Of a DNA stretch of 56,888 nucleotides, positions 22,900-43,374 are shown in pieces. Position 1 is the stretch's first letter. Every line of letters begins with the position of its first letter. The notes under the pieces were generated by a model that had not been told where the DNA came from, made no database searches, and worked only from the letters and a program-made list of their open reading frames with translations. The translations under genes were made by a program, and so were the position numbers. Origin of the DNA: an uncultured Oscillibacter sp. (GTDB lineage Bacteria; Bacillota; Clostridia; Oscillospirales; Oscillospiraceae); NCBI RefSeq assembly GCF_947654275.1, contig NZ_CANTJS010000017.1, forward strand, positions 1-56,888. The letters are read 5' to 3'.

Positions 22900-23352
22900 T
22901 CAGGACTCCATATGCCGCCCCAAAAAAGCGGCTATGGTCTGGGCCAGCTTGTATTCCGCGTCGCCGGTGGCGATGCCGGGGGTGGTGCCCACAAAGAGGA
23001 CCAGGCCCAGCAGGTCCCCCTCGGAAAGAATGGGGGCGGCCACATTGGTCATCAGCTTGTCGCTTCCGTCGGTGACGGGAATGGGGTCTCCGTCACCGGC
23101 GTATTGATAGATGCGGCGGCTCTCCATGACCTGCTCCAGCTCCGGTGTAATCCGCTTGCCCATCAGTTCCCGCTTGCCGCCTCCGGCTACGGAGATGACT
23201 GTGTCCCGGTCCGTTACGGCGCAGATGGAGCCGGTGGAGCGGCTCATTGTCTCACAGAGCTGTCCGGCGAAGTCCTCCACGCCCCCCAGCAGGGAATATT
23301 TTTTGAAAATGACCTCGCCGTCCCGGCTGGTGTAAATCTCCAGGGGGTCGCC
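22900..23352 (-). pseudogene. spoVT: spoVT 3' portion, separated from its 5' end by the 19.9-kb element
   Basis: Reading from GDPLEIYTSRDGEVIFKKYS onward, this encodes the second half of the SpoVT AbrB domain and the complete C-terminal GAF-like domain (FAGQLCETMSRSTGSICAVTDRD...AAFLGRHMES). Its own start and first 33 codons are at 43276-43374. Joining the two at the shared GGCGACCCC gives 180 residues, against 178 in Bacillus SpoVT from memory. In the integrated state this part is expressed only as the tail of the recombinase. Confidence 0.93.
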
Positions 23353-25083
23353 GTTGCTGATAACTTTGACAGTGAAAATTTTTCCCCGGCGGTGGTCGCT
23401 CTCCTGGGTGATTTGGACTTCATAGGGGGATTTTGGTGCTTCCAGGGGAATGGAGGCGGGGGCCAGGGCGGCGATGGCGGGACCGCTGTCCTCCCATTCG
23501 TCGGAGCGGAGCAGAGCGTCGATGTCACTTTTCAGCAGGACTTCAATGTGGTCCTCGAACACCCGGATTTTCTGAATGATGAGCTGGAGATCGTTCCGGT
23601 CCAGCTTGGGCTTGGCCAGGATGCCGTCGAAGACCTCCAACGCCGTTTTTGCTGTCCGGTTCACTTGGATGATGGTGTTCCGTTTGTCCACCGTCATGGC
23701 AATCTGGTTTTGGATGCCCTCGATGCGGCGGAGGAGGTCGCTCTCCAGCTCATCATAGGTTTCCTCCAGAACCTCCTCCCGGTCCGGGTGCTTCATGATG
23801 TCCCGGATGCGCTGGCGCTTTGTGGCTTTCAGCTCCTCCTGAAGGTCCGCCAGCACCGCTTCCAGATTGGCGGCGCTCTGTTCGGTCTCGGCCACGTCCT
23901 CCGCCTCCCGGGCCAGGTCCGCGTTGAGCCGGTCCAGCATGGCGGCGGAGTTGTCTTTGATCTTCCGCACGTAAAGCTTCAGCAGCTCATCCAGCTTGTC
24001 CACCCGGATGTGATGGCTGGTGCAGCCCTTCAGCCCCCGCTTGTGGTACTCCCCGCAGCGGTAGGCGTCCTTGATGTCCCGGCGGCTCATGGCGAACATG
24101 GGGGAGCCGCAGTCGCCGCACTCCAGAAAGCCGGAGTAGACATTGTCGTACTTCTTCTGCCCCCGGTAATGGGCAGTGGAGCGGCTTTCCCGCAGGGCCC
24201 GGGCTGTGGCAAAGGTCCGGTAGTCGATGATGGGCTGGTGATGGCGCTCGATGACGATGTGGTCCAGCTGGTCCCGCTTCACGTCCCTGCCGTTGATTTT
24301 TTTCCGGGTGTACTTCCCCTGCCGGAGGGTGCCGATGTAGAAGTCATTGTCGATGATACCCTGAACGGTCACGATGGCCCAGGTGGGCTTGACGGTCCGT
24401 TTATACTCCTCTCCGGCGGCCTCCTTCCTGTCCCGCTCCGCCATGCGGGGGGTAGGGACGCCCTGGTCGGTAAGATAGTTGGCAATCTTTTTGTAGCCCC
24501 AGCCGTCGATGTAGAGCCGGAAAATCTCCCGGACGATCTCCGCCTCGGTGGGGACAATCTCAAACTCCTGCCGGGGGCTGATGATGTAGCCATAGGGGGC
24601 GGCACAGAGCCACTTGCCATCCTGCTGACGTCGCTTGATGACAGATTTCACCTTTTTGCTGGTGTCGGTGACGGGCATCTCATTGATGAGAAACTGGAAC
24701 TGAATTTTCAGCCAGTCGTCGTCGTTGGGAAAGTCGATATTGTCCCCGATGGAGATGATGCGGACGCCTGCGTCCCGCAGGTCCTCCAGCTCCACCAGGC
24801 CCCGGGAGTTCCGGCGGGAGAAGCGGGAGAAGTCCTTGATAATGAGGATGTCCTTTCGGTGGTCCATCAGCTCCCGGCGCAGGGTCTGGTAGCCGGGCCG
24901 CTGGTCGAAGGTGTAGCCGGACTTGTCCCGGTCCTCGAAGAAGGTCAGTGTGGAGTCGGGGAATTTCTGCCTCACGAAGTCCTGGATGATGGCCTTCTGG
25001 TTTTCGATGGAGGTGTTGTCCCGGTCCAGCTCCTCGTCCACGGAGATGCGGCAGTAGCCGGCGATGTCAAAGCGTTCAATCAT
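22900..25083 (-). CDS. Large serine recombinase fused in frame to the SpoVT C-terminal domain
   Basis: A 727-residue fusion. Residues ~1-145 form the serine-recombinase catalytic domain (AGYCRISVDEE; the nucleophile is the Ser of RISVD; IIKDFSRFSR carries the arginines). Next come the Recombinase domain (~165-290, APYGY...GTPTPR-type) and a zinc ribbon (CGDCGSPMF...CGEYHKRGLKGC). A coiled coil follows (~390-480, AETEQSAANLEAVLADLQEELKATKRQR). At residue 580 the frame passes through GGCGACCCC (Gly-Asp-Pro) into the last 147 codons of spoVT, including its GAF domain. Without integration the frame would end in 26 other residues (see 43195-43275), giving 606 aa. ATG 25083 overlaps the end of the RhuM gene. 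It drives insertion and excision of the element. Confidence 0.93.
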   Translation of the reverse strand: MIERFDIAGYCRISVDEELDRDNTSIENQKAIIQDFVRQKFPDSTLTFFEDRDKSGYTFDQRPGYQTLRRELMDHRKDILIIKDFSRFSRRNSRGLVELEDLRDAGVRIISIGDNIDFPNDDDWLKIQFQFLINEMPVTDTSKKVKSVIKRRQQDGKWLCAAPYGYIISPRQEFEIVPTEAEIVREIFRLYIDGWGYKKIANYLTDQGVPTPRMAERDRKEAAGEEYKRTVKPTWAIVTVQGIIDNDFYIGTLRQGKYTRKKINGRDVKRDQLDHIVIERHHQPIIDYRTFATARALRESRSTAHYRGQKKYDNVYSGFLECGDCGSPMFAMSRRDIKDAYRCGEYHKRGLKGCTSHHIRVDKLDELLKLYVRKIKDNSAAMLDRLNADLAREAEDVAETEQSAANLEAVLADLQEELKATKRQRIRDIMKHPDREEVLEETYDELESDLLRRIEGIQNQIAMTVDKRNTIIQVNRTAKTALEVFDGILAKPKLDRNDLQLIIQKIRVFEDHIEVLLKSDIDALLRSDEWEDSGPAIAALAPASIPLEAPKSPYEVQITQESDHRRGKIFTVKVISNGDPLEIYTSRDGEVIFKKYSLLGGVEDFAGQLCETMSRSTGSICAVTDRDTVISVAGGGKRELMGKRITPELEQVMESRRIYQYAGDGDPIPVTDGSDKLMTNVAAPILSEGDLLGLVLFVGTTPGIATGDAEYKLAQTIAAFLGRHMES
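23344..23352. other. Left attachment junction of the element (core GGGGTCGCC)
   Basis: The 9-bp core shared with 43276-43284 in the same orientation. To its right (element side) lies TTGACAGTG, whose CACTGT (minus-strand reading) is 16 bases from the core. The matching ACAGTG lies 17 bases from the core at the other end, as expected for a serine-recombinase attP. Confidence 0.88.
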
Positions 25084-26092
25084 TGGTCTCACCCTTCAGG
25101 TATTTCGCTGTCTGGCGGTCAAACTCCGAGATGTAGTCGGCGTCCTGCCTTTTGCGGAACTCCGCATAGATGTCGCCGACCTTCTTCTCCGCCGCCTCCC
25201 GGGAGATATGTCCCTTATCCTCCAGGACTTTCCGACGGTTGTTGGCAAGAAAGCGGTCCGTCTCCGCCAGCCAGTCCTTCATGGACATGGGGACCTCGTC
25301 CTCCGCCATGAGCTCGGCGTAGTCGATGAACATGGTCACCAGGCGGTTGAGGCGGGAGAGTTCTTTTTCGTTCAGGTAGTTTTTGGCAACCAGTGCGTCG
25401 CTTTTCAGTATTTTTCCATCCGGCGCGCCTTTCCAGGTTGTCAGGCCCATGGTAGGGCTGTCCAGGGTTGCCCGCTCAGAGATCAGCTCCGCCGCCGTTT
25501 TACCGGTGACGGCGAAGTGGAGCTTGTTCTGAACGAAGGCGTAGAATGCCCGGGTGGTGTCGCTGTTTTTGTCATAGTCGTAGCTGCACTGCTCAAACAC
25601 GTCCGCGATTTTCTGATAGGCCCGCCGCTCGCTGGCCCGAATTTCCCGGATGCGCTCCAGTAGCTCGTCAAAATAGTCCCTGCCGAAGGGGCGGCCGTTT
25701 TTCATCAGCTCGTCGTTGAGAACAAAGCCCTTGGTGATGTATTCTTTCAGGGTTTTCGTGGCCCACTGGCGAAACCGGGTGGCCTTCTTGGAGTTGACCC
25801 GGTAGCCCACGGCGATGATGGCATCCAGGTTATAGTGTTGCGTTTTGTAATTTTTTCCATCTGAGGCAGTCGTCAAGAAATCCTTGACAACTGCCTCCTT
25901 GTCCAGTTCTTCCTCATCAAAGCAGTTTTTCAGATGAAGGCTGATATTTTGCTTTGAGGTCTCAAACAACTCCGCCATTCCCTTTTGCGACAGCCAAAAG
26001 GTCTCGTCCTGAAACACCACGCTGACGAATTCTTTTTCGCTATCGTTGTTGTAGAGTAGAATTTCTCCACTCTGTAAAAGTTCTTTTCCCAT
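25076..26092 (-). CDS. RhuM family protein
   Basis: A 338-residue member of the RhuM (virulence RhuM) family, named after a Salmonella SPI-3 gene of unknown function and often found on mobile elements and next to restriction loci. Landmarks are FWLSQKGMAELFETSKQNISLHLKN (a helix-turn-helix-like N-terminus), YNLDAIIAVGYRVNSKKATRFRQWAT, and the Fic-like/DNA-damage-type middle part (YDYDKNSDTTRAFYAFVQNKLHFAVTGKTAAE). The length is normal. GGAGGAAA precedes ATG 26092. The gene overlaps the recombinase start by 8 bases, so the two are co-expressed; a role in controlling the recombinase is possible but not shown. Confidence 0.9.
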   Translation of the reverse strand: MGKELLQSGEILLYNNDSEKEFVSVVFQDETFWLSQKGMAELFETSKQNISLHLKNCFDEEELDKEAVVKDFLTTASDGKNYKTQHYNLDAIIAVGYRVNSKKATRFRQWATKTLKEYITKGFVLNDELMKNGRPFGRDYFDELLERIREIRASERRAYQKIADVFEQCSYDYDKNSDTTRAFYAFVQNKLHFAVTGKTAAELISERATLDSPTMGLTTWKGAPDGKILKSDALVAKNYLNEKELSRLNRLVTMFIDYAELMAEDEVPMSMKDWLAETDRFLANNRRKVLEDKGHISREAAEKKVGDIYAEFRKRQDADYISEFDRQTAKYLKGETND

Positions 26093-26146
26093 GCGATTTC
26101 CTCCATATCAATTTGAACTGCATTTCTGATTTAAATTACAGATAAT

Positions 26147-26175
26147 ATTGTATCACAGCCCGTGGGAAAACGCAA
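26147..26175 (-). promoter_or_regulatory. Promoter of the rhuM-recombinase operon
   Basis: Minus strand: TTGCGT (26170-26175), 17 bases, TACAAT (26147-26152), about 55 bases before the RhuM start. It looks like a vegetative sigma-A promoter and not a sporulation one. Confidence 0.6.
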
Positions 26176-26213
26176 CTGGAATCGCCGAACAGTTTTGTGC
26201 TGTCCGGCATTCC

Positions 26214-26474
26214 TCACCGGGATACCTGCCGCTTCCGGGCTTTCTCCCGCTGGACAGCCTGTTCGGCGGAACGGCGGCGGTTATAGCGAAGCAGGGCGCC
26301 CGTCTCCTCGGCCAGGTCCTGCCGACCGGAATAGAACACCGCCACGGTATATTTTTCCTCTGCGAACCTGCGGTATATATTTTGCAGGCGCTCTTGTACA
26401 TCCTGGCTGGACTGGTCCTCGTGTGAGAGCCAGATGTCCACCAGCTTGCTTTCTCGATGGGTATTGATTTCCAA
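26214..26474 (-). CDS. Small mobile-element protein of unknown function (86 aa)
   Basis: An 86-residue protein starting MEINTHRESKLVDIWLSHEDQ. It continues with RLQNIYRRFAEEKYTVAVFYSGRQDLAEETGALLRYNRR and a basic tail. Small proteins with this layout (VEIWL...YRQYK..KYLVAVFxSGxxDL...LLRHNR) are frequent on clostridial conjugative and genomic islands; I know no function. The start lacks a clear ribosome site. No other reading of this segment is better. Confidence 0.7.
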   Translation of the reverse strand: MEINTHRESKLVDIWLSHEDQSSQDVQERLQNIYRRFAEEKYTVAVFYSGRQDLAEETGALLRYNRRRSAEQAVQREKARKRQVSR

Positions 26475-26772
26475 CTGGGGTATCCCGTCCTTTCTCTGTG
26501 AATATTTGGAAGTATTTTCTTCTTTTCCAACGGCTTTTATGCGCTGAAATATTCAGAAAAAGGGCGGGTGAATCTGCTTGTCGATGGCTGGTGCCTCCTT
26601 TCGTGACAGTTTGGCCGATTAGATTTCACCAGTAAGAATGATTAAAATTCCTGTATACGTGCCCGCTGGGGCGCTTGTGTCCTTGTTTAGGATCGTGGCC
26701 TCCCAAAAAGAGGATGTCAATATGTGACACCCTCTTGACGCTTTTCCGCTCAATATGAGAAAATCAGGTGCA

Positions 26773-27697: not shown

Positions 27698-27876
27698 ATC
27701 ACCATTCCTTTCAGTTTGATTTGTGAGCATTTGCCGGGGATTTGCCGTTCTACCCAATCCGGTTCCTGGCAGGCAACCTTGCTTGGCGCTGTGCCGTGTG
27801 CTTTCCCTGGCTTGCCCGTTCAAACTGAAGTCATGGCAAACTTCCCCGAAAAGTATCTGATTGGACAGTCATGCAC

Positions 27877-27910
27877 CTGTACCCCAGGCACAGACGTGCC
27901 TGGGGTACAG
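27877..27910. promoter_or_regulatory. 34-bp perfect palindrome in the ParB-like gene's leader
   Basis: CTGTACCCCAGGCA (27877-27890), six-base spacer, TGCCTGGGGTACAG (27897-27910). It lies between the promoter at 28007-28035 and the ParB-like start. No T-run follows on either strand, so a protein-binding site is as likely as a hairpin. Confidence 0.6.
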
Positions 27911-28035: not shown

Positions 28036-28040
28036 CCTCA

Positions 28041-30272
28041 TTATGTTCTTGATTTTTCCAGTCTCTGATAATACGCCTCCAACTTCTCCTCGCAGATTTG
28101 CTCGATCTCCGCTTTTTCTTCCCCGCTCAGCCGTTTCCACACAGACTCGTCCACTTGGACAATTCCCAAAGTCCGGGTGTGCCGAAGCATCTGCATGTCC
28201 TCAAACCGCTTGAAGGGGTTGGCCAGGACATTCCGCTGGGCCTCGCTGTTGGTGTATCCGCCCTTGGCAAAGATGCTGTTTGCCTTTTCCACGGTCAGTC
28301 CGGCGGCCCGCCGTCCCTCATAGTAGGACCGGAAATAGTCCGCGATGTCCGACAGCTTTACTCGGCCCTTTTCGTCGGCGTACCGCAGAACCGCCTTGAT
28401 TAAGACTGGCTTGTAAGAGTAGCTCATATCCATTTTCCGAACCATGTCCAGAAACAGGCCCTTCCGGTTGGAGTCGTCGATCAGTGTCCAGCCGTATTCT
28501 TTTGCGTACTTCTCCAGGGTTTCCTCCTTGAAATATTTGAAAACCCGATGCTCGCTCATGGGCACCGCCAGATCCGGGACCAGCTTGCCCTCCCGGACGT
28601 AGCGCTCGATGGTCTCCGCCTGCACGTCCACCCGGCGGACAAACTCCATCTGGGAGATCATGCCCTCCGCTTCTTCCTGCCAGTTGAACACGTCCACCAG
28701 CTCGTAGTCTGTGGCGCCGATGGGCCAGTCCAGTAGGGCGGTGGGCTTCTCCCGGCGATCATAGAGGGCGTTCTCCGCCGCTCGTTTGTCCCAGGGCGAG
28801 AGAACTAACTCCCCCGCCCGGTATTTCCGCAGCTTAAACAGGCGGTGCAGAGACATGGGCATATTGTACTGGCTGGCGTTGTCCACGAAGTCAAAGACCA
28901 TCAGGCTCTCCTTGCCCTCGTAAAGCCGCATTCCCCGGCCCAGCTGCTGGGTATACAGCACCCGGGACATCGTAGGCCGGGCCATGAACAGCGCTTCGAT
29001 TTCCGGGCAGTCCCAGCCCTCGTTCAGCAGGTCGCAGGCACAGAGCACCAGGATCTCCCGTTGGATGAATTTGTCCTGGAACTCCTCTCGTTCCGAGCGT
29101 TTCATGCCGCCGGACACTGCAGCGGCGGGGACTCCAGCCTCCCGAAACAGAGAGGCAATCTCCTCTGCGTGCCAGACTGAGGCACAGAACACCACCGTCC
29201 GCCGCCCCTGGACATATTGGATCCAGGTATCCACGATCAGACGGTTCCGCCCCGGCACATAGATTTTGGTTTCCAGGTCCCGGATGTTGTAGCGGACGCT
29301 GTTGAACCGCACCTTGGTCAGGTCGATGTTGGTGTGGATGCGGATGCACCGCACCGGCACCAGCTCTCCCAGCTCCACGGCGGTCTGGATGTCCAGCCGG
29401 TGTGCGGTGTTTTTAAAGATATCCAGGATGCTCCTGTCATCATTCCGCTCCGGCGTGGCAGTCAGGCCCAGGGTAAAGGCGGGCTTGAAGAACGCCAGGA
29501 CCTTTTGGTAGGTATCTGCCGCCGCATGGTGGGCCTCGTCAATGATAAGGTAATCAAATTCATCATCCTTGAAACGGTCCAGATGCAGGGCCACGCTCTG
29601 CACGCTGCCGCAGACGATGTGGGCCTCCGGCTCCTTGACGGCCTCCAGATAGCGGCCTACCGCCGCCTTGGGCCATAAGGCCCGGAATGTCTCCGCCGCC
29701 TGCTCCACCAGCTCCTGGGTGTGGGCCAGGAACAGCGTCCTGCCGCCCAGGCGCTTGGCGTCCAGCACCGCCGTCACGGTCTTGCCGGTCCCCGTAGCGT
29801 GGCAGAGCAGGGCGATGGTTTCCCCGCGGCTTCGCATAAACTTCAGAGCGTCCAGTGCCCGGCCACGTTGGGTGGGCAGGTAGTCCTCAATTTCCTGAAG
29901 CCGGGGACGGCTGCCCAGGAAGAGCCGGAGTTCGTCCTTTATCAACTCCGGCTGGAGCTGCATCTGCCGCACCGCCCAGCGGTATACGTCCCAGCCCATG
30001 TAGATCATGCTGTTCTGCTTCAGCAGGTCATCGTAGAACTTGCCGGAGGCCACCAGACTTTTGTGGTGGGAGCCCTCATCGTCGATTTCAATGGCCACTC
30101 GGCGGTCGTTGTTTTCCAGAACGAAGTCGGCATAGCGGCTGTTCTGGTAGACGTCGTAAAAGTGATATTGGGAATAGAGGTATCCGGCCTTCTCGGCGCC
30201 GAAGGCCTCGCTGAACAGTTCGATGAAAAGGTCTTCGGCCCTGCTGCCGGAGGCGGAGCGGGGAACGGGCAT
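28041..30272 (-). CDS. Superfamily 2 helicase with N-terminal nuclease domain
   Basis: A ~743-residue defence-type helicase. Residues ~15-95 resemble a PD-(D/E)XK (Vsr/DUF559-like) nuclease: YADFVLENNDRRVAIEIDDEG gives the D...E-x-D metal ligands. Residues ~130-300 are RecA-like domain 1 with Walker A ATGTGKT and motif II IIDEAHHAAAD plus LGLTATPERND. Domain 2 follows with VVFCASVWHAEE, LLNEGWDCPEIEA and QQLGRGMRL. The last ~250 residues are unassigned. ATG 30272 is preferred over GTG 30281 because GAGG lies 6-7 bases upstream. The start sits 8 bases after the MazG-like gene. It may act with the adjacent Wadjet or independently; I cannot tell. Confidence 0.88.
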   Translation of the reverse strand: MPVPRSASGSRAEDLFIELFSEAFGAEKAGYLYSQYHFYDVYQNSRYADFVLENNDRRVAIEIDDEGSHHKSLVASGKFYDDLLKQNSMIYMGWDVYRWAVRQMQLQPELIKDELRLFLGSRPRLQEIEDYLPTQRGRALDALKFMRSRGETIALLCHATGTGKTVTAVLDAKRLGGRTLFLAHTQELVEQAAETFRALWPKAAVGRYLEAVKEPEAHIVCGSVQSVALHLDRFKDDEFDYLIIDEAHHAAADTYQKVLAFFKPAFTLGLTATPERNDDRSILDIFKNTAHRLDIQTAVELGELVPVRCIRIHTNIDLTKVRFNSVRYNIRDLETKIYVPGRNRLIVDTWIQYVQGRRTVVFCASVWHAEEIASLFREAGVPAAAVSGGMKRSEREEFQDKFIQREILVLCACDLLNEGWDCPEIEALFMARPTMSRVLYTQQLGRGMRLYEGKESLMVFDFVDNASQYNMPMSLHRLFKLRKYRAGELVLSPWDKRAAENALYDRREKPTALLDWPIGATDYELVDVFNWQEEAEGMISQMEFVRRVDVQAETIERYVREGKLVPDLAVPMSEHRVFKYFKEETLEKYAKEYGWTLIDDSNRKGLFLDMVRKMDMSYSYKPVLIKAVLRYADEKGRVKLSDIADYFRSYYEGRRAAGLTVEKANSIFAKGGYTNSEAQRNVLANPFKRFEDMQMLRHTRTLGIVQVDESVWKRLSGEEKAEIEQICEEKLEAYYQRLEKSRT

Positions 30273-30282
30273 GGCAGTCACC

Positions 30283-35246: not shown

Positions 35247-35844
35247 TGTCCTCCTCCTTTCTCAGCACCGACACCACCGCGTCCAGCTTCTCACTGGATA
35301 CCACCGACAATACCGTGGGCAAAATCGCAAACTTACAGCTTCCCTGGCTGTATTTTCCCTCAATCCGTTGAATCACACAGTGGTTGTCCAGCAGGGTCAG
35401 CGCCCGCTTCACATCTTTCATGTTGGGCCGTGCCGAAAGGATTGCGTAATCCGTTACCACCTTTTCCAGCAGGTCTCTCACGGTGCAGATCGCGTCGTGC
35501 TCCAAACCCAGGCGCTCCTGATTTTCATCATATATCATACGGATCGCAAGCAAAATGGCAGTCTGATCTTTATCCAATTGACAGCGGTTAGCCTCATCCG
35601 TGTTAACGACATAGAAATAGCCATTGAAATCGTCCTTGCGCAGGTCCCAGTCCAACAGCGCCAGATATTCCCGCACCTCCGCATAGTGGCTGGACAGGAA
35701 GAGATAGTCCGGATTATTGACCCGGACTTTGTCAGCCCTGCACAGGGTTTTCACAAGATACGTCCGGCTAAGCAGCTGGTTGCAGACAGATTTAAACTGA
35801 TCCAACTCTTTCTGTGTCGCTCCATTGATCCAGTCCACATTCAT
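35215..35844 (-). CDS. jetB: Wadjet subunit JetB (DUF4194, KITE/MukE-like)
   Basis: A 209-residue DUF4194 protein equivalent to MukE, a winged-helix subunit that bridges the SMC heads to JetA. It carries LLSRTYLVKTLCRADKVRVNNPDYLFLSSHYAEVREYLALLDW and NRCQLDKDQTAILLAIRMIYDE, typical of this family, and ends in a very acidic tail (EEDSEEAEEDIAD). It overlaps jetA by 4 bases (ATGA) and jetC by 32 bases, so all are co-translated. Confidence 0.93.
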   Translation of the reverse strand: MNVDWINGATQKELDQFKSVCNQLLSRTYLVKTLCRADKVRVNNPDYLFLSSHYAEVREYLALLDWDLRKDDFNGYFYVVNTDEANRCQLDKDQTAILLAIRMIYDENQERLGLEHDAICTVRDLLEKVVTDYAILSARPNMKDVKRALTLLDNHCVIQRIEGKYSQGSCKFAILPTVLSVVSSEKLDAVVSVLRKEEDSEEAEEDIAD

Positions 35845-37238
35845 GTCTTTTCCTCCCTGCGTTTGATTTGAAGCCGGGGGATAGAATATCCGTTCTCCGA
35901 GTAAACTCCTTCCATCTCATGGACTGTGTAGGTGGAAAACCTGTCGTCGCCGGTCAACACGGCGAGCAGGCTCATGATGTACGCCTTGTCGTCCTTCAGA
36001 TCCAAGTCCTCCGAATAGCACACCCCGGCCGCCCCCAGCCACTGCTCCACATAGGCAGCTATCGCACTCCTGCCATATTCCGAACGCAGTAGCTGTTGGG
36101 CCTGCCTGGCCATCTCCGGGTCGATTCTGTCCTCTTGGATCAGTACCGGAGCCGCCTTAGTCCGCTTGCCTGGACGCTTCCGGTACCAGACGCTTTTTTC
36201 CGAAAGGAAAGACTGCTCGTACAGCTGAAAGGCGGGCTGGATCTGCTCCACCAGCTCGGAGGCCCTTCGGTTTCTGGACAGTGCGGTCAGCAAATAGTTC
36301 AGATTGCCCCGGACATTGTGATCCCGGTTGGTCAGGTTCTCGATTTTTTGTGTGGTTGCCCGGGTGTACCGCCGGACCTGCTGGTCAATTTCATCCAGGA
36401 ATTCATGTTCAATGTTGTCGTATCGCTCCTTGACCCAAAAGATTTTGCGCAGCAGGTCGCTCCGACAGGCGTTCAGATCACTCCCGCGTCTGTCCTGAAG
36501 GGCGGCGTTGGACATGGCGGTCAGCAGGGCGTCATCCTCCAACCAGCCGGACAGGATGGTTTGGATTGGAACCCGGTATTTTGGAACAGAATCCTTGATT
36601 TTTAAAGGGCGAATGTATGCCTCTACCACCTTCTGTCCAAAATCATCAAAGTGGGAGGCAAGAATCACGTTGACATTCTGCATATTGATTTGCCGCTGGA
36701 AAAAGTGCTTTACGTTGTGGTAGACCATTTGCAACAATTTAATTAGCGACTGCGTGTTATCATAGGCGCTGTAAACCGCCGCCATCTTGTCATAGACGCT
36801 GCTTCCCTCGCTGGCCACCTTCAATGTAGAATATGTGCCAAAGACGTAAGAGTAGCCCCACATGGGACTGTCGTCCTGCAGCAGGTGAAACAACTCCAGC
36901 AGCCGGCTGCTGTACCCCGGAACGGTGATATATTCATCAAAATCCTCTCCCCGCTGTTTCTCCAGCCATCCCTTGCTGTCCAGCTTCCGAATCAGAAATC
37001 TGGCACGACCGGAGACATCACGCAGCTCTTCCTCGTCAATATCTTCCCCCTCAAAGGTTGCCTCCGCCAGTTGCTGTTCCAGTTTGCCACGCAGCATGGA
37101 GTATAACGTCTCTTCCGGAATCTTTAGATTTTCCTGATACGACTCATAGAGGACATCCAGTGCGTCTGCATACAAACTCCGGTTAGGAGAAGCCAGGACA
37201 GAAAAAAGCTCATTGGGAACCGCGTCAAACAATTTCAT
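35841..37238 (-). CDS. jetA: Wadjet subunit JetA (kleisin/MukF-like)
   Basis: A 465-residue protein that starts MKLFDAVPNELFSVLASPNRSLYADALDVLYESYQ, characteristic of the JetA family (DUF5716 type), the kleisin that closes the SMC ring. A winged-helix N-terminal part (~1-120) is followed by a helical middle and a C-terminal winged-helix-like domain (~380-455). It is the first gene of the jet operon; TAGGGGGA lies before ATG 37238. Only 27 bases separate it from the divergent DUF5348 gene, and a TATAAT (minus strand, 37275-37280) inside that gene may serve as its -10. I do not assign a Wadjet subtype. Confidence 0.92.
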   Translation of the reverse strand: MKLFDAVPNELFSVLASPNRSLYADALDVLYESYQENLKIPEETLYSMLRGKLEQQLAEATFEGEDIDEEELRDVSGRARFLIRKLDSKGWLEKQRGEDFDEYITVPGYSSRLLELFHLLQDDSPMWGYSYVFGTYSTLKVASEGSSVYDKMAAVYSAYDNTQSLIKLLQMVYHNVKHFFQRQINMQNVNVILASHFDDFGQKVVEAYIRPLKIKDSVPKYRVPIQTILSGWLEDDALLTAMSNAALQDRRGSDLNACRSDLLRKIFWVKERYDNIEHEFLDEIDQQVRRYTRATTQKIENLTNRDHNVRGNLNYLLTALSRNRRASELVEQIQPAFQLYEQSFLSEKSVWYRKRPGKRTKAAPVLIQEDRIDPEMARQAQQLLRSEYGRSAIAAYVEQWLGAAGVCYSEDLDLKDDKAYIMSLLAVLTGDDRFSTYTVHEMEGVYSENGYSIPRLQIKRREEKT

Positions 37239-37472: not shown

Positions 37473-37509
37473 ATGGAGCCACCAAATAAAATGTCACATT
37501 CAGATCATG

Positions 37510-38355
37510 TTATAGTTTTGTAAAGAATTCTTCGTCTATCTCGTAATCTTTTACTTCCTTAACTCCAATGCCATACTCAGCCAGTTTGTTGATAAATTCT
37601 TCGCCGTCAATCAGATCAATCTGCTGCTTACCCGGAGAAGATGCCTCCTCAATCGCCGGTTTAGAAAATGAACCTGTTGTAATAAAAACAGCCTTTTCAA
37701 TGTTGGTTGTCAGTGAGCCTCTAAAGTCCCGGATATCACCAGAACTAACCACACCTTGATATCGCTTGCACTGAAATGCAATATTAAAGCTAAATATTCC
37801 ATTGATCCTAAGTTTACCTGTCCCATCAATCCCTCCGTCTCCGGAATTTTTGGTAACCTCCACTTGGGTAAACCCAGATTCGCGTAGCACTCTTTGTGTC
37901 AACCGTTCAAATGCATATGGATTCATATCAGTCAAAACTTTATGTAACTTCTCTCGCCAAGGGCGCACTTCTTCCGGTATGTTTTCAAGATCATCATTTA
38001 TCGCGGCATTTTGGGAAGAAGTACTATTTTTGCGGCGGTTCTTCGCAATAGCATTTCCATCGACAGCAGCCACATCGGAAAATTCCGATGTGATGGACCA
38101 TACGCCTCGTGCGCTGTTGGTAATCGCCCCATGCTTTTTCAGCAGTGTCCGTGCCCACGCCAATCTATAGTTTACTTCGCTCAAACTGCTACTGCTAAGA
38201 TGTGGAATTTCCAGTACTTCATCTGAAATTGAAAGAAGTCCTGCCACTTTCTCGTTAATCTCCTCATTTTTTCCCGAACCGCCCAAATCTTTCAGGGCAG
38301 TATATGTTGCTGTGATAAGTTCTCCATATCTTGGCACTGTTTTTTTATTCGCCAT
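37510..38355 (-). CDS. mrr: Mrr-type restriction endonuclease
   Basis: A 281-residue type IV restriction enzyme that cuts methylated or foreign DNA. Residues ~1-90 form the Mrr_N winged helix (VPRYGELITATYTALKDLGG...ARTLLKKHGAITNSARGVWSIT). Residues ~150-265 form the PD-(D/E)XK domain: FERLTQRVLRESGFTQVEVTKNSGDGGIDGTGKL, then FNIAFQCKRYQG (the Q-x-K variant typical of Mrr) and AVFITTGSFSKPAIEEA. The length is usual. It lies between the Wadjet operon and the DUF1016 gene, both in the same direction, but with >100-base gaps. It has a likely start at ATG 38355. It is AT-richer than chromosomal neighbours. Confidence 0.95.
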   Translation of the reverse strand: MANKKTVPRYGELITATYTALKDLGGSGKNEEINEKVAGLLSISDEVLEIPHLSSSSLSEVNYRLAWARTLLKKHGAITNSARGVWSITSEFSDVAAVDGNAIAKNRRKNSTSSQNAAINDDLENIPEEVRPWREKLHKVLTDMNPYAFERLTQRVLRESGFTQVEVTKNSGDGGIDGTGKLRINGIFSFNIAFQCKRYQGVVSSGDIRDFRGSLTTNIEKAVFITTGSFSKPAIEEASSPGKQQIDLIDGEEFINKLAEYGIGVKEVKDYEIDEEFFTKL

Positions 38356-38492
38356 AACAGCATTCTCCTAACGCTTCATAAACTGCGACCAACACAAACG
38401 GGCATATTTTCATATTATACGCTACAAATCGTTAGATTTCAACCTTTAGGGCCTGCTTACTGGAAGACCGCCAGACCTTACCGCTCTATGTT

Positions 38493-39529
38493 TTACTTGT
38501 TTTCCAGCTTCTCAAACTCCTCCAACTTCAGCTCTCGTTTCAGTTCTTCCTCTGTGGGCAGATAGGTATATACTTCGCGGCATAAATCTGCTGGTTATCC
38601 TCCGGCAAAATCAGCTGTACCAACGTGTCGCTTTTCTGTGCGCACAGGAGCAGTCCTACCGGTGGGTTGTCCCCCTCGTTTATCTGGTACCGGGTGTAGT
38701 AGTTCACATATATCTGCATCTGGCCGATATCCTGATGGGTGAGGAAACCCGTTTTCAGGTCGATCAGCACGAAGCAATTTAGGATATAGTTATAGAACAC
38801 CAAGCCAATGTAGAAATGCTGCTCGTCCACATTGAAATGCTTCTGCCGCACCACGAAGGAGAACCCGCAGCCCAGCTCCAGGAGAAATTTTTGTAAATGG
38901 TCGATGAGAGCCTGTTCCAAACTGGACTCATAGAAATGCTCGTTAGCCGGGAGGTCCAGGAACTCCAATACATAGGTGTCCTTGATGATTTGCTCATACT
39001 CGGGCTTGGGCTCGGTGGTCTGAATCTCCTCCGCCACGCTCTCCTTGTCCCGGCTGGCCAAGAGGCGCTGGTAGAACATGGTGTTAATTTGCCGCTCCAG
39101 TTGGTAGGAAGTCCAGCCGGATTTTGTACACTCCTCCAGATAGAAAGCCCGCGCTTTGGCATCGGGTACCTTCATCAGAGAGCGGTAATGCGTCCAGCTC
39201 AATTCGGGACGCAGTGCGTCCTGAATTGGAAATGTGAGATAGAACCGACGCATATTGTGTAGATTGCTTAGATCAAATCCTTTTCCGAACTCCTTCGTCA
39301 TCCGCTTGGAGATGTATTGCAGCACCTGTTTGCCGTAGGCCGCTCGGTCATTCTCCCTGCAGGCATCAGAAATCGACTTGCCGATTTTCCAGTATGCCGT
39401 CACCATTGCGGTGTTGACGGTTGTGTAGACCTGCCGCTGTGCCTCGATCACATAGTCACGGATGGAGCGGTAGGTATCCTCCTACTGCGGGACACCCGGC
39501 GCGTTCTCTCGTTTTGTCAAGTTGTTCAT
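38493..39529 (-). pseudogene. DUF1016 (YhcG-like) PD-(D/E)XK nuclease, two lesions
   Basis: From ATG 39529 the frame reads MNNLTKRENAPGVPQ, then a TAG at 39482-39484, then EDTYRSIRDYVIEAQRQVYTTVNTAMVTAYWKIGKSI in the same frame. The core is complete: the DUF1016_N helices and the C-terminal nuclease with YILNCFVLIDLKTGFLTHQDIGQMQIYVNYY (D-x-K). An extra base near 38567 shifts the end; the correct tail YLPTEEELKRELKLEEFEKLENK lies in the next frame and stops at 38493. A shorter protein (38540-39451, from a GTG) may still be made. The family joins defence islands as a nuclease. Confidence 0.85.
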
Positions 39530-40080
39530 AGAGTGCATCCTCAGTTTCTTCAAAATCGCCTCATCCGCCGGACAAAATTCATACTGCGGAATTTCCTCTA
39601 GAGGCTGTTTTAAAACGAGCGGAATGCCGGATGGGGGCAAATTTTTTACCCAATAAGCATGTGATATCCGTAAGGCGGCAGAGCCGCCAACGGCTATCCA
39701 ATCGTCAGATAAGGCGATTGGATGCGGGAATCCTGACGGATTTCAAGTCCAATCAACGCAGTCCTGGCGGAATAAGATACCACAAAACGGCGTTTTGACG
39801 GTTTTAAAACAGCCTCTAGCGTGATCCAGCGGATGTCGTGGTGCTCCAGCATCTGGGGGATACCCTCCGAAATTGCAGTATTGAACAGTGTCAACAGTGT
39901 CAGGTGTATATTCAGGTCCGGGTAATCGTGGTCCACCTCCATGAACACGTTGCCAACCGAGATAGTGACGGCCAATTCTTCCTGGAACTCCCGAATGAGA
40001 GCCTGTTTCTTTGTCTCTCCCGGCTCCACCTTGCCACCCACAAATTTCCCATTGCGGGAAGTGTACACTGGAGGTCTTGA
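39482..40080 (-). pseudogene. NUDIX hydrolase split by a MITE and lacking its N-terminus
   Basis: From about 40070 the frame reads NGKFVGGKVEPGETKKQALIREFQEEL, a complete Nudix box (GX5EX7REXXEE) of a MutT/CTP-pyrophosphohydrolase type, then FMEVDHDYPDLNIHLTLL and EHHDIRWITLE. There the 39601-39816 element intervenes. Beyond it the protein resumes EIPQYEFCPADEAILKKL, the normal end. The N-terminal ~30 residues are absent, replaced by unrelated DNA. Removing the element restores the frame exactly. Confidence 0.85.
39598..39819. mobile_element. MITE-like element inside the NUDIX gene (~216 bp)
   Basis: A 19-bp perfect terminal inverted repeat CTAGAGGCTGTTTTAAAAC (39598-39616) and GTTTTAAAACAGCCTCTAG (39801-39819). 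It has the internal core ATCCTGACGGAT (39730-39741), then CAAG and AACGCAGTCCTGGCGGA. The interrupted gene shows the empty site was CTAG, so the target duplication is TA or CTAG depending on where the repeat is taken to end. Confidence 0.88.
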
Positions 40081-40083
40081 TTC

Positions 40084-40245
40084 ATGCACATCGTGCAAAA
40101 TGGCTCGAGGGCAATGGTGCGCTGGCTGGCGGAGAATAACATCACAAATGCCGTCGAAATTCAGGCCTTTGACCAGCTGGGCTACCATTTCCAACCCGAT
40201 TTGTTCGAAAATGAGCATCACATATTTCTCAAGGACAAGACCTAA
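40084..40245 (+). pseudogene. C-terminal fragment of an unidentified gene
   Basis: An open frame of 53 codons ends HHIFLKDKT. It includes AMVRWLAENNITNAVEIQAFDQLGYHF, which looks like the end of a real protein but which I do not recognise. It is antisense to the 5' side of the NUDIX remnant, so this is the scar of a past rearrangement. Confidence 0.4.
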
Positions 40246-40250
40246 AAGCA

Positions 40251-40278
40251 GACCCCCCGCAGTTTTATGTGGGAGGTC
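40251..40278 (-). terminator. Terminator of the peroxiredoxin gene
   Basis: On the minus strand GACCTCCCACA pairs with TGCGGGGGGTC around TAAAAC (imperfect), followed by TGCTTTTAG, just past the stop codon at 40286. Confidence 0.55.
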
Positions 40279-40285
40279 GTTTTAC

Positions 40286-40748
40286 TTATTTGCTCTCTTT
40301 GAGATATGCCAAGACCTCCGCCGCGTTGGTGTCCGACTTGACCTTGGGCATAACCTTCTCAACCACGCCGTTTTCATCAATGATAAATGAGGAGCGCACC
40401 ACGCCCATACTCACCTTGCTGTAATTTTTTTCTCCTGCCATACACCGTAGGCCTGGATGGCGGTCAACTCCGGGTCGGAGAGCAGGATAAACGGCAGGCT
40501 ATGTTTCTCCGCGAATTTCTGGTGGGAGGCCACGGAGTCCTTACTGATGCCGATCACCACTGCATCGATTTTCTTGAACTCCTCAAAGGCCCCGCAAAGG
40601 CGCAGGCCTGACGGGTACAGCCTGGTGTGTTGTCCCGAGGATAAAAGTACAGCACAACCGTCTTTCCACCGAAGTCAGACAGAGACACGGGATGGCCGTC
40701 CTTGTCTGGCAAGGTAAACTCCGGGGCTTTGGTTCCAATATCCAACAT
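40286..40748 (-). pseudogene. bcp: Thiol peroxidase of the BCP family, two frameshifts
   Basis: From ATG 40748 the frame gives [26 protein letters not shown] and the active site [15 protein letters not shown] (peroxidatic Cys in TPGC). Near 40597 one base is lost (CAFAG then [18 protein letters not shown] in the next frame). Near 40430 a run of seven As carries two extra bases before NYSKVSMGVVRSSFIIDENG. The remaining frame ends LAYLKESK at 40286. The intact protein would reduce peroxides with thioredoxin. Both lesions are recent-looking single events, one of them in a homopolymer, so read error is possible. Confidence 0.85.
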
Positions 40749-40772
40749 ATTATGTTTCCTCCCTACTATCAC

Positions 40773-41120
40773 TCAGGCCACTTCCAACTGCCTCATCACA
40801 GCTTGTTCAAGCTCTGCCATTTTTACAGAATCCGTAAGGGAGCCCATCCGGAAACGCAAACAGCTTTGGGGTATAGTGGTGAGCTGCTCTGCCAGAGCTG
40901 TGCTCTGCTTTTTCAGACCAAACCCAGAGACCTTCACATGGCACGGCATGGGCGGTCTGACAGAGGAGGTCAGTGGCACCACTGTTACAATCCTTGAATT
41001 CCGGTTCGTTAGGTCGCTGCTGATTACAATGGCCGGATGAGGGCCCCTCAGTACGTCTCCTCGGGAAAACAACAGGTTGACCATCCAAATGTCGCCTCTT
41101 TGAACGCGGTTTTTTCTCAT
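40773..41120 (-). CDS. MazF/PemK-type toxin (endoribonuclease)
   Basis: A 115-residue PemK/MazF family protein. The barrel motifs are present: VQRGDIWMVNLLFSRGDVLRGPHPAIVISSD, the NSRIVTVVPLTS strand with the conserved T/S, the ALAEQLTTI stretch and MGSLTDSVKMAELEQAVMRQL. Such toxins cut mRNA at short motifs. ATG 41120 overlaps the TGA of the upstream methylase-like gene (ATGA), so the two are coupled; the frame upstream of it is only read-through. No MazE-like antitoxin lies beside it, which is unusual. Confidence 0.9.
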   Translation of the reverse strand: MRKNRVQRGDIWMVNLLFSRGDVLRGPHPAIVISSDLTNRNSRIVTVVPLTSSVRPPMPCHVKVSGFGLKKQSTALAEQLTTIPQSCLRFRMGSLTDSVKMAELEQAVMRQLEVA

Positions 41121-42889
41121 AAAACGTCCTCCAATCCAACTTTTTGATAGAATTGTTCGCATACCCGCCGCCTTGACGCATTCAACACCTCAAGCTGCTC
41201 GTCAATGAGCACATTGGCCCCGCGAAGCTCAGAGGCATACTGGCTTTGCTGTACAAGCGGGATATAATGGAGCCGTAATTGCTCCAAATCCGCCGCGCGG
41301 ATCATAGGAATACTGCTACCCATCTGGATCTGTTGAAGCATCTTCTGGCCAACAGGGCTCTGCAGAACATAATAGAGATACCATGGGTCAACCTTGGTGC
41401 CGTCTGCACGGATCCCCAAAAAGTCGTGGGAGAGATACAGGGGCACATCCTCCGAAATTATACAGAGTTTAATCGCTTTACCCTTACAGGAAATCAAAAT
41501 ATCCCCGACACGGATTTGATAGCGATCAGCATTTTCACGCCCCGAAAGATCAAAATGGGCAATATTGTCCATACAGATCTTCCCATTTTGAACGTCAGAC
41601 AGCCGCAGCACCCCGGCGCCCTCCGCACTGCGGACTAGGTTGGCAACATTGATACCTCTATATATCTGGGCCACCTCTTTCATCCGGATGGCACTGCGGC
41701 TTCGACTGTCTCCAGCGTTTTGTACGGTATTGATATCCATATCACTCAGCCGGGTAGTGGGCAGATACCGTTGTGGGGACAGATTGAACGCATCCAATTC
41801 AAAGCGGTCTACCTGCCTTCCGCTTGTCCGTATCATAGGGAGTATGTCACTCCCCGAATGATGGAACATACTTCTGTTTTCATTCTTTTGCTTCCATAGA
41901 CCAGGTGTGGGAAGCTCCATCATCCAAACAGTATCCCCCTGTTTCCGCCCCTTACGGAAAACCACTAAAGATGTTGCCGGCGCTGCCGGCCAAAACGGAA
42001 CACTATTTTGAGGTAGTGCAATGATAGCATCTATCACATTTAGATCCAGCAAGTATTTCCGGAATGCTTGATTTTTTGCGTTGAACAACGCACCGTTTGG
42101 AATCCGGCAAACGCCAATTCCTGTTTTGTTCAATGCGCTGAGCTGGTGATAAGCATAAGACCAGTCACCGCCGCAGACAACCGAGTCGGAAACGAACACC
42201 TGCTCTCCACCTCGCAGCGAGGGGAACATGACGGACATATCCGCTTTGGAGGATATGTCTCGGGTGTTCAGGCAGTCTTCATTGGTCTGTTGGAATGCAA
42301 AGCCGTGCATTTTTGAGCGAAGGACAGAGAGATGGAACAACAACGGGTCTATCTCCTTGGTCACAACATGAAGCGGCAAGCCTTTTTTTCGCCTGTCTTG
42401 GGCAATCCTGAGCGCCATATTACCCACGCCTGCGGCGCCATCATAGAACGTGCCGGTTTTATCGCCCAGAAGCTCACAGGCCAGACGCTCCAACCACGTC
42501 GGAACGGCCAGTTCGGGACGACGAACCCGGCTGAGGTTGGGATAGACCAACCGATCTGTCAAGCGGCGTAATTTGTCCTTATCATCGCTAAACTGTGCCC
42601 AGTGGTAAAAGAGCTCCCGAAATGTATCTTCCAGTAAATGGGTTTGGGAATACTCCGCAAAAGACACTTCCGCCTCGGCATCAGTTTCTTTTAGACGATT
42701 GCGGACGGCGGCCTCAAAGTCCGCCTGGCAAAATGAGATGTTGCACAGGCTGTGGATTGTCTCTTTCTCCAAAAACCAGAAGCCAATACACAGTGCGATG
42801 GATTGGTCCAGCAGATCTGTCATGGCATAACCCCTGCCACGGGCTATGTTGAGTATACCACGTATGGGATCAGAATAGACATCGCGCAT
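41117..42889 (-). CDS. HsdM-like N6-methylase fold lacking NPP(F/Y), fused to an HsdS-type specificity domain
   Basis: A 590-residue protein. Residues ~90-330 follow type I N6-adenine methylases: motif I as FYDGAAGVGNMALRIA, the acidic VTKEIDPLLFHLSVLRSKMHG, and the later PNGALFNAKNQAFRKYLLDLNVIDAIIALPQNSVPFWPAAPATSLVVFRKG. Where motif IV NPP(F/Y) should be, the sequence is QVFVSDSVVCGGDW, so methyl transfer is unlikely. Residues ~400-580 are an HsdS-like target-recognition domain (VGDILISCKGKAIKLCII...LSHDFLGIR, DPWYLYYVLQSPVGQKML). It is coupled to the MazF-like toxin downstream, with its own promoter. No HsdR gene is present. It may sense DNA or restrain the toxin (inference). Confidence 0.85.
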   Translation of the reverse strand: MRDVYSDPIRGILNIARGRGYAMTDLLDQSIALCIGFWFLEKETIHSLCNISFCQADFEAAVRNRLKETDAEAEVSFAEYSQTHLLEDTFRELFYHWAQFSDDKDKLRRLTDRLVYPNLSRVRRPELAVPTWLERLACELLGDKTGTFYDGAAGVGNMALRIAQDRRKKGLPLHVVTKEIDPLLFHLSVLRSKMHGFAFQQTNEDCLNTRDISSKADMSVMFPSLRGGEQVFVSDSVVCGGDWSYAYHQLSALNKTGIGVCRIPNGALFNAKNQAFRKYLLDLNVIDAIIALPQNSVPFWPAAPATSLVVFRKGRKQGDTVWMMELPTPGLWKQKNENRSMFHHSGSDILPMIRTSGRQVDRFELDAFNLSPQRYLPTTRLSDMDINTVQNAGDSRSRSAIRMKEVAQIYRGINVANLVRSAEGAGVLRLSDVQNGKICMDNIAHFDLSGRENADRYQIRVGDILISCKGKAIKLCIISEDVPLYLSHDFLGIRADGTKVDPWYLYYVLQSPVGQKMLQQIQMGSSIPMIRAADLEQLRLHYIPLVQQSQYASELRGANVLIDEQLEVLNASRRRVCEQFYQKVGLEDVL

Positions 42890-42908
42890 AGTAACACCTC
42901 GCCTTGTA

Positions 42909-42986
42909 GAGTAATTGCATTATTCTTTATAGCGATAGTGTAACACACCGAATGCTGGCTGTCAAGAGTAATCTAATTATTTTTTA
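42909..42986 (-). promoter_or_regulatory. Promoter of the methylase-like/MazF operon flanked by direct repeats
   Basis: Minus strand: a TTGAC-type -35 near 42960-42965 and TACACT at 42938-42943, 16-17 bases apart. It is bracketed by two direct repeats, AGAGTAATTGCATTATTCTTTA (plus-strand reading, 42909-42930) and the 18/22 match at 42965-42986. The repeats sit just after the start site and over the upstream edge of the -35, as operators would. Confidence 0.6.
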
Positions 42987-43001
42987 ATAAGCCTGCAAAT
43001 A

Positions 43002-43035
43002 AACGAGCAGCCGCCATATTCGGCTGCTGCTCGTT
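43002..43035 (-). terminator. Hairpin, possible terminator at the right end of the element
   Basis: AACGAGCAGCCG (43002-43013) pairs with CGGCTGCTGCTCGTT (43021-43035) with a 3-base bulge. It lies downstream of the truncated SpoVT frame (minus strand); the T-run is poor (GTTTATTTGC). Confidence 0.45.
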
Positions 43036-43194
43036 AACCTAATAGCCTAAACAAGCGAATCTCCGGTACTGTGGAAAATCTGCTCCTGCATTATGAGCTG
43101 CCCGCTGAAAACCATGCTGTAAAAAGAATCTCTTTACCAATTCATGGATATAAACAGGCCAAAGGCAAATACGTACTCCCTTTTTGGTGGTATC

Positions 43195-43374
43195 TTATGT
43201 ACCCCACCCCATCCGCTTCCCCAGCTCCAATATCCCGCGGCAGAACCGCTCCCACTGTTCCAATGTCTTCTGTGAGGGGTCGCCCTCCCGGATACGCATG
43301 GTGCGGCGAATTTCCTTGGGGATCACGACCCGGCCCAGATCGTCGATCCGACGCACAATTCCTGTTGCCTTCAT
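43195..43374 (-). pseudogene. spoVT: spoVT 5' portion with a replacement 26-residue tail
   Basis: ATG 43374, preceded by AAAAGGAG, begins MKATGIVRRIDDLGRVVIPKEIRRTMRIREGDP. This is the first 33 residues of SpoVT, the AbrB-family forespore regulator. At GGCGACCCC the chromosomal gene stops and the frame enters the element, adding SQKTLEQWERFCRGILELGK and RMGWGT, stop at 43195. The 59-residue product lacks half of the AbrB swapped-hairpin fold and all of the GAF domain, so it is unlikely to work. The borrowed tail is what would end the recombinase in the excised circle. Confidence 0.93.
43276..43284. other. Right attachment junction of the element (core GGGGTCGCC)
   Basis: The second copy of the 9-bp core, codons 31-33 (Gly-Asp-Pro) of spoVT. 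To its left (element side) is CCCACTGTTCC, the inverted partner of the CACTGT arm near the left junction. Confidence 0.88.

What the first reader, a model, noticed from the sequence alone, without database searches (positions are those of the whole stretch)
23344..43284. A 19.9-kb defence element interrupts spoVT exactly and in frame
SpoVT residues 1-33 are encoded at 43276-43374 and residues 34-180 at 22900-23343. Both halves meet the element at the same 9-bp core GGCGACCCC (Gly31-Asp32-Pro33) in the same reading frame. Deleting one core copy plus everything between gives a 180-codon spoVT with no other change. SpoVT in Bacillus is 178 residues. The large serine recombinase lies at one end. 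The layout parallels the skin element in sigK, where a serine recombinase restores the gene in the mother cell. I know of no description of spoVT as such a target. It suggests either a sporulation-timed excision switch or a parasite that has disabled spoVT.
Basis: partly seen in the sequence, partly recalled or inferred. Interest (0 to 1): 0.95.

Follow-up and report, generated by a model that had tools for sequence, protein, structure and literature searches.

The report
Mobile elements repeatedly splitting spoVT
In this gut bacterium and many relatives a mobile DNA element sits at one exact codon of a spore-development gene, in frame, so that its own recombinase is fused to half of that gene; sequence evidence suggests it may be built to cut itself out inside the developing spore.

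Summary
spoVT is split at codons 31-33 by a 19.9-kb element; removing it leaves a 180-codon gene. The same chimera occurs in 74 of 80 kept relatives; 35 of 394 genomes drawn from the order carry the recombinase. attP lies inside the recombinase gene; its last ~24 codons, conserved as protein, stay on the SpoVT N-terminal half. Integration swaps two C-termini; excision would restore both. The element moves between families. Interrupted spoVT is the only SpoVT_C gene found in carriers searched, is as constrained as intact spoVT and mostly keeps a sigma-G-type promoter. A small companion gene has a forespore-type promoter in 38 of 62 cases, against 10 of 541 and 11 of 650 control ORFs and 1 of 62 recombinases. 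I read it as an intervening element excised in the forespore and later reintegrated; known examples act in the mother cell. Excision itself is not shown.

The parts
43276..43374 (-). spoVT 5' half, codons 1-33 (start to core)
   Evidence: 100% identical over 33 aa in many interrupted relatives
43426..43454 (-). Putative sigma-G-type promoter of spoVT, GCATA-N17-GATACTA, 51 bp before the ATG
   Evidence: a looser pattern read off these sequences, in 32 of 33 intact and 31 of 41 interrupted loci, 2.1% of shuffles; published sigma-G consensus with at most 1 mismatch in 27 of 38
43276..43284 (-). Left copy of the 9-bp core GGCGACCCC (Gly-Asp-Pro)
   Evidence: dyad centre of attP at the GA
43195..43275 (-). 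Detached 3' end of the recombinase gene (26 codons plus stop, SQKTLEQWERFCRGILELGKRMGWGT), now the tail of the SpoVT N-terminal half
   Evidence: 38 distinct left ends chosen with a loose tail pattern, in-frame dN/dS 0.24 against 1.09 in shifted frames and on the reverse strand; codons 10-24 alone pS 0.744, pN 0.252
23344..25092 (-). Large serine recombinase, element-encoded part (583 aa up to and including Gly-Asp-Pro)
   Evidence: Pfam Resolvase, Recombinase, Zn_ribbon_recom
22900..25092 (-). 730-aa recombinase::SpoVT_C chimera ORF, no internal stop
   Evidence: SpoVT_C E 4.2e-36, residues 606-729; 92 distinct complete chimeras in the loci held
23344..23352 (-). Right copy of the 9-bp core
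22900..23343 (-). spoVT 3' half, codons 34-180 and stop
26214..26474 (-). 86-aa companion protein, candidate recombination directionality factor (TTG start)
   Evidence: homologues in 12 of 12 elements compared and 96 of 119 distinct loci; in 9 of 86 genus genomes, 8 of which carry this recombinase at E<=1e-120 and the ninth (G115) a contig-cut piece of it; no Pfam, NCBIfam or PHROG family above its cut-off
26513..26542 (-). Putative forespore-type promoter GCATA-N18-GAAAATA, 38 bp before the companion gene
   Evidence: window hit; family statistics
25076..26092 (-). RhuM-family gene overlapping the recombinase start
   Evidence: Pfam PF13310; in 8 of 12 elements compared
30643..37238 (-). Cargo: Wadjet operon JetA (35841-37238), JetB (35215-35844), JetC (31881-35246), JetD (30643-31905)
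28041..30281 (-). Cargo: ResIII/SNF2-type helicase
37510..42889 (-). Cargo: Mrr endonuclease, YhcG/DUF1016 nuclease, NUDIX, PemK/MazF-like protein, N6-methylase/specificity fusion

Best explanation
It is one member of a large family of mobile elements whose serine recombinase is dedicated to one site, codons 31-33 of spoVT. Shown by sequence: attP lies inside the recombinase's own 3' coding end, so integration exchanges C-termini. The recombinase loses its native tail (26 residues in the window) and gains SpoVT 34-180; SpoVT 1-33 gains the tail. Inferred: in growing cells the element stays integrated and spoVT is off. In the developing forespore a small companion protein, made from a sigma-G/sigma-F-type promoter, turns the recombinase towards excision. 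spoVT is then whole as its own sigma-G promoter fires, and the circle regains a recombinase with its native tail that can reintegrate after germination. The C-terminal swap may also mark for the enzyme which state it is in.
For: Chimera in 74 of 80 kept genome loci; 92 distinct complete chimeras (an open frame was the criterion). Tail conserved as protein. attP dyad symmetry 64.6% about the GA, against a mean of 25% (sd 8.8) over 43 centres, 31 elements. Recombinase and SpoVT_C histories differ within one ORF (90% against 43% identity, L231/L232). Mean dN/dS of SpoVT 31-180: 0.146 interrupted, 0.143 intact. One SpoVT_C match in each of 36 genomes reached through element loci, 35 of them split. 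In 19 carriers both ends lie on one contig, same strand, 6.8-80.7 kb apart. Spo0A and SpoIVA in all 17 distinct genomes tested. spoVT promoter mostly kept. Published sigma-G consensus with at most 1 mismatch before the companion gene in 38 of 62; recombinase 1 of 62; other ORFs 11 of 650 and 10 of 541 likely genes; shuffles 1.3%. Sigma-E and sigma-K 0 of 62.
Against: No excised circle and no rejoined spoVT was seen in a carrier (one search is a pattern search of the loci then held). The companion gene's role rests on linkage and promoter only; 23 of 119 distinct loci lack it, five of them with 3.9 kb or more upstream (L066, L107, L120, L138, L158), and in four it lies on the other strand (L122, L141, L145, L227). 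No companion promoter matches the sigma-G consensus exactly (0 of 62; spoVT 8 of 38). The tighter pattern was shaped after seeing the data; the pattern read off spoVT gave only 7 of 71. 10 of 41 interrupted spoVT copies lack the spoVT promoter pattern. Forespore excision puts the element at risk in the germline cell. Because the element is mobile, young insertions would also leave spoVT undecayed. The tail set was chosen with a loose tail pattern, which favours conservation; L176 fails it.
Confidence: 0.6

Rival explanations
1. A plain parasite: the integrase uses a conserved spoVT codon as an address, spoVT is off for good in carriers, and carriers sporulate poorly or not at all.
For: Insertion is horizontal and frequent, so many insertions may be young; no excision seen; whether the carriers sporulate was not checked.
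Against: Equal constraint on interrupted spoVT, promoter mostly kept, sporulation markers in the tested carriers, companion gene with forespore-type promoter.
Confidence: 0.2
2. The chimera is the working product: the SpoVT_C domain on the recombinase senses a sporulation signal or multimerises it, and controls or blocks excision; restoring spoVT is secondary.
For: Open chimera frame in 74 of 80 kept loci, the rest being cut, at other sites or a remnant.
Against: SpoVT_C is no more constrained than in intact genes; the fusion follows automatically from the att positions.
Confidence: 0.12
3. Low-rate excision and reintegration without developmental timing (phase variation, active lysogeny); the companion gene does something else in the forespore.
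For: The yabG yin element was found excised at all time points (PMC10747680, passage); contigs break at the core in one isolate assembly (L136/L245), though its left junction is unbroken.
Against: Forespore-type promoter on the one companion gene found in all 12 elements compared.
Confidence: 0.15

Closest known systems
skin element in sigK (C. difficile CD1231/CD1234; B. subtilis)
   Same: Large serine recombinase element splitting a sporulation regulator; small RDF under a sporulation sigma factor confines excision (PMC5025042, passages including the abstract)
   Different: Mother-cell gene and sigma-E/SpoIIID-controlled RDF; no recombinase::target chimera mentioned in the passages; here target and companion promoter are forespore-type and cargo is variable
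gin in gerE (B. cereus), vfbin in spoVFB, SP-beta in spsM, phi3T in kamA, yin in yabG
   Same: Intervening elements in sporulation genes; gin is non-phage, with a 9-bp overlap (passages of PMC5595907, PMC6957869, PMC10747680)
   Different: gerE, and such genes generally in PMC6957869, are mother-cell genes; no order-wide family is described in the passages read
SP-beta integrase SprA (YokA) with SprB
   Same: Nearest solved large serine recombinase by sequence (9dxh, 9dxd); RDF-dependent excision (PMC6957869, passages)
   Different: Distant (E about 1e-19); its attP is not in the integrase coding end, as far as I recall
TnpX/TndX elements (Tn4451, Tn5397)
   Same: Clostridial mobile elements with large serine recombinases; TnpX matches (2mhc), a plasmid tndX gene at 29% identity; some relatives here carry a gene that looks like a relaxase by eye (no family search)
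   Different: No dedicated spoVT site known to me (recalled)
SSV-type archaeal integrases
   Same: attP inside the integrase gene, which is split on integration (recalled; review PMC8371274 seen in a search listing only)
   Different: Tyrosine enzymes; no in-frame swap with a regulatory protein (recalled)

Membership tests
Large serine recombinases | Resolvase, Recombinase and zinc-ribbon domains | tested here: met
Large serine recombinases | Palindromic attP with short identical core | tested here: met
   31 rebuilt attP sites
Large serine recombinases | Catalysis of attP x attB and attL x attR | not testable with these tools
   needs an assay
Sporulation-gene intervening elements (skin type) | Interrupts a sporulation gene so that deletion restores it in frame | tested here: met
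Sporulation-gene intervening elements (skin type) | Excision during sporulation | not testable with these tools
   no culture or reads; no excised form found by pattern in the loci held
Sporulation-gene intervening elements (skin type) | RDF under a sporulation sigma factor | tested here: inconclusive
   companion gene with forespore-type promoter in 38 of 62; RDF activity untested
Sporulation-gene intervening elements (skin type) | Target and timing in the terminal mother cell | tested here: not met
   spoVT is sigma-G dependent in C. difficile (PMC3738446, PMC3789822, passages); sigma-E and sigma-K consensus 0 of 62 before the companion gene at up to 1 mismatch; timing itself not tested
Prophage | Virion genes in the element | tested here: not met
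   14 window element ORFs chosen by eye show none in Pfam; short ORFs and other elements not fully scanned
Wadjet defence system (cargo) | JetA, JetB, JetC and JetD together | tested here: met

The most novel reading that the evidence does not exclude
A germline intervening element: a mobile element that leaves the chromosome inside the forespore in each sporulation, giving the spore a whole spoVT and a free circle, and reintegrates after germination, with direction set by a forespore-made factor and by the recombinase's own C-terminus, which is exchanged for a host transcription-factor domain in one state.
Probability: 0.4. Interest if true: 0.96.

Novelty: new variant of a known kind. Interest (0 to 1): 0.87.

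Why it matters
It would add a forespore regulator to the list of genes split by intervening elements and extend that phenomenon from a few strains to an order of common gut bacteria. It raises a sharp question: how does an element survive excision in the cell that becomes the spore? The reciprocal C-terminal swap is an unusual way for an enzyme to carry a mark of its own integration state, and the family offers 92 distinct chimeras with one defined target. It also warns annotators that, in up to about a tenth of these genomes (34 of 315 high-quality ones carry the recombinase), spoVT may look absent and a recombinase oddly long.

Tried and rejected
Chance repeat: the 9-mer is uninformative by itself, but the in-frame join and empty sites settle it. 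Assembly artefact: rejected, since the junction recurs in many assemblies, among them isolates such as Flavonifractor sp. An100, Butyricicoccus pullicaecorum and Flintibacter muris. A second intact spoVT as backup: not found in the own genome or in 36 genomes reached through element loci (many are incomplete). Three genomes (G060, G024, G056) hold both an intact gene and an element end; with 4-6% estimated contamination I leave these open. Context conservation: the window's neighbours of spoVT were not found next to it in the relatives tested. Element replacement in a sister genome (G034): SpoVT_C dS 0.009 against recombinase dS 0.456 looked like replacement; on the left, identity falls at the core (96% to 60%), but on the right it falls about 500 bases inside the recombinase gene, so recombination is as likely; not used as evidence. 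First promoter scans: an ad hoc sigma-G pattern gave 9 of 39 interrupted and 2 of 33 intact because I had the -10 box wrong; a corrected pattern was read off the sequences; that pattern gave 7 of 71 before the companion gene; a sigma-F pattern gave 5 of 61; then a published consensus (table in PMC3416734) was used. Circle forms in gut phage records: H1 ends about eight residues before the core, H2 is again a chimera. No link of the companion protein to a known RDF (only weak hits to the GlpG N-terminal domain and others). Paper searches holding spoVT with intervening element, serine recombinase, prophage/interrupt/Clostridia, mobile genetic element, and recombinase/insertion (0, 0, 1, 23 and 11 papers, 20 of the 23 listed) showed none that describes spoVT as a target by title and abstract start; of these I read passages of PMC3738446, PMC3789822, PMC7438776 and PMC3416734 only.
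Full report
Observation. The 9-mer alone is expected about 1.5 times in such a window. The proof is the protein: the joined gene encodes 180 residues, and 32 of 61 genomes of the genus searched have a full-length match; the seven intact genes of the genus read out carry REGDPLEIYTSR across the site. The own genome has a single SpoVT_C match, the interrupted one.

What was missed. The recombinase ORF on the minus strand (22900-25092, 730 aa) has no stop at the element's end and reads in frame into SpoVT 34-180. Pfam finds Resolvase, Recombinase, zinc ribbon and SpoVT_C (E 4.2e-36) in this one frame. On the other side SpoVT 1-33 reads into 26 element codons and a stop.

The pattern is a family. 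In 86 genomes of the genus, 9 carry the recombinase at E<=1e-120: seven have a complete chimera ORF of 709-748 aa, and the copies of G022 (split over two contigs) and G020 (5' end cut) also reach SpoVT_C. The named genome collection gave 416 relatives, of which the best 80 were kept. In 74 of these the frame runs into SpoVT_C at the same residues (two are cut by the contig end within SpoVT_C). Of the six others, three are cut by the contig end before or just after the core (L089, L111, L136), L101 and L147 continue into other sequence, and L149 (Angelakisella massiliensis) has a shortened recombinase beside an intact spoVT. An even draw of 394 genomes of the order, own included, found the recombinase in 35, in 28 of 168 genera; 34 of 315 high-quality genomes. 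Of the 29 other loci fetched from that search 27 end in SpoVT_C (23 by pattern, four by eye: L215, L218, L220, L223) and L226 and L233 do not; five matches were not fetched, of which three (G094, G481, G501) have frames of 531-567 aa in the listing. Over all loci held 119 of 134 (redundant) matched the pattern; 92 distinct complete chimeras remain after removing copies and incomplete ones.

attP is inside the recombinase gene. The tail after Gly-Asp-Pro is a conserved protein segment, roughly S(Q/L)xTLxxWExFCxGMLDLAKRxGW, in 38 distinct left ends. These were picked with a loose tail pattern, which favours conservation; L176 fails it yet has a similar tail. In-frame dN/dS is 0.24, against 1.09 in both shifted frames and on the reverse strand. 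Beyond the presumed attP arm (codons 10-24) synonymous sites are saturated (pS 0.744) while pN is 0.252. The attP sites rebuilt from 31 elements (33 pairs tried, 2 dropped; G058's right end was paired with one of its two left pieces) have dyad symmetry of 64.6% centred on the GA of codon 32, with a mean of 25% (sd 8.8) over 43 centres; attB is weakly symmetric (40% at that centre, best 43% elsewhere). So the crossover is probably the GA of the Asp codon. Integration therefore exchanges C-termini between the recombinase and SpoVT, and excision would restore both.

Mobility. Within one ORF the two parts have different histories: 4186 pairs, Spearman 0.41, with extremes such as L231/L232 (recombinase 90%, SpoVT_C 43%; genomes of two families) and L130/L227 (56% and 80%). 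The recombinase moves between families and lands on the same codon. In 19 carriers both ends lie on one contig, in the same orientation, 6.8 to 80.7 kb apart (left tails read). Cargo differs: the window carries Wadjet JetABCD and several nucleases, while L044 and L178-L180 share a gene that looks like a relaxase by eye.

Is spoVT still in use? Of 36 genomes reached through element loci each has one match reaching the SpoVT_C domain at E<=1e-9; 35 are split and one (that of L149) is intact. Mean dN/dS of residues 31-180 is 0.146 among 10 interrupted and 0.143 among 25 intact genes of the genus (44 and 286 usable pairs; medians 0.126 and 0.138). SpoVT 1-33 in 38 left ends has dN/dS 0.029. A sigma-G-like promoter pattern (NHATR, 16-18 bp, NATAHYA) stands before 31 of 41 interrupted and 32 of 33 intact copies, 2.1% of shuffles; this pattern was read off these sequences. 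Spo0A and SpoIVA are present in all 18 handles tested, which are 17 distinct genomes (G045 and G130 are the same): 14 interrupted carriers, one remnant carrier (G133) and two non-carriers.

A timed partner. Clustering ORFs of 12 elements found, besides the recombinase and shadow ORFs over it, one family in all 12: a small protein (86 aa in the window; listed ORFs 86-141 aa) on the recombinase strand. A profile found it in 96 of 119 distinct loci, some of them the same genome twice; in four it lies on the other strand (L122, L141, L145, L227). Of the 23 misses most have little upstream sequence, but L066, L107, L120, L138 and L158 have 3.9 kb or more. In the genus it occurs in 9 of 86 genomes: 8 recombinase carriers, and G115, whose contig ends inside a 212-residue recombinase fragment. 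The published B. subtilis sigma-G consensus (GNATA, CAWAMTA; table in PMC3416734), with at most one mismatch and 16-18 bp spacing, occurs in 38 of 62 upstream regions, against 1 of 62 for the recombinase and 11 of 650 other ORFs. Because those ORFs are mechanical, I added 541 longest non-overlapping ORFs (10 have it) and shuffles (1.3%) (Fisher p about 1e-34, on sequences deduplicated at 75% identity but still related). None of the 62 matches exactly, against 8 of 38 for spoVT: the first -10 base is mostly G or A. With two mismatches the counts are 51 of 62, 16 of 62 and 75 of 650. Sigma-F gives 7 of 62, sigma-E and sigma-K none. The same test on spoVT gives 27 of 38. In C. [quoted passage not shown] The window's own site is GCATA-N18-GAAAATA, 38 bp before the start. 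I propose that this protein is the recombination directionality factor; no family library or solved structure names it.

Model and limits. Shown: dedicated site, in-frame reciprocal swap, mobility, constraint, promoter pattern and gene linkage. Inferred: excision, its timing and cell, the companion's role, reintegration. Forespore excision is the bold step because that cell becomes the spore; the circle must persist and reintegrate. The C. difficile skin system confines excision to the mother cell with a sigma-E-controlled RDF (PMC5025042, passages including the abstract). Elements in gerE, spsM, spoVFB, kamA and yabG are described in passages of PMC5595907, PMC6957869 and PMC10747680, where sigK and gerE, and such genes in general, are called mother-cell genes. 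My paper searches for spoVT as a target found no such description by title and abstract start in the held library.

Noticed in passing
L202 10924-13323 (same as L149, Angelakisella massiliensis): Recombinase shortened at its 3' end (stop after 581 read residues, no attP half) with an intact spoVT about 280 bp after the last matched recombinase residue: perhaps a trapped or repaired remnant.
   Followed up: partly
L101, L147, L226, L233 just after the recombinase: Recombinase reads through a related core (AGCGATTCG, GGCGACAGC, GGCGACGGC, GGCGACAGG) into non-spoVT sequence: possible secondary integration sites.
   Followed up: partly
L136 end and L245 start (isolate Flavonifractor sp. An10): Two contigs of an isolate assembly break within about 20 bases of the core; a branch between integrated and excised forms would do this, but the left junction (L246) is unbroken and the two ends do not overlap exactly.
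   Followed up: partly
L066 and L067 (genome G094): SpoVT N- and C-terminal parts lie about 240 kb apart in opposite orientation on one contig, with a diverged recombinase 2.3 kb from the C-terminal part: possible inversion.
   Followed up: no
L143 8548-9848: Two copies of the companion gene in one element.
   Followed up: no
window 25076-26092: RhuM-family gene overlaps the recombinase start and is present in 8 of 12 elements compared; matches PADLOC candidate family PDC-S05.
   Followed up: partly
window 41117-42889: Single ORF joining an N6-methylase part and a type I specificity part, beside a PemK-like gene.
   Followed up: no
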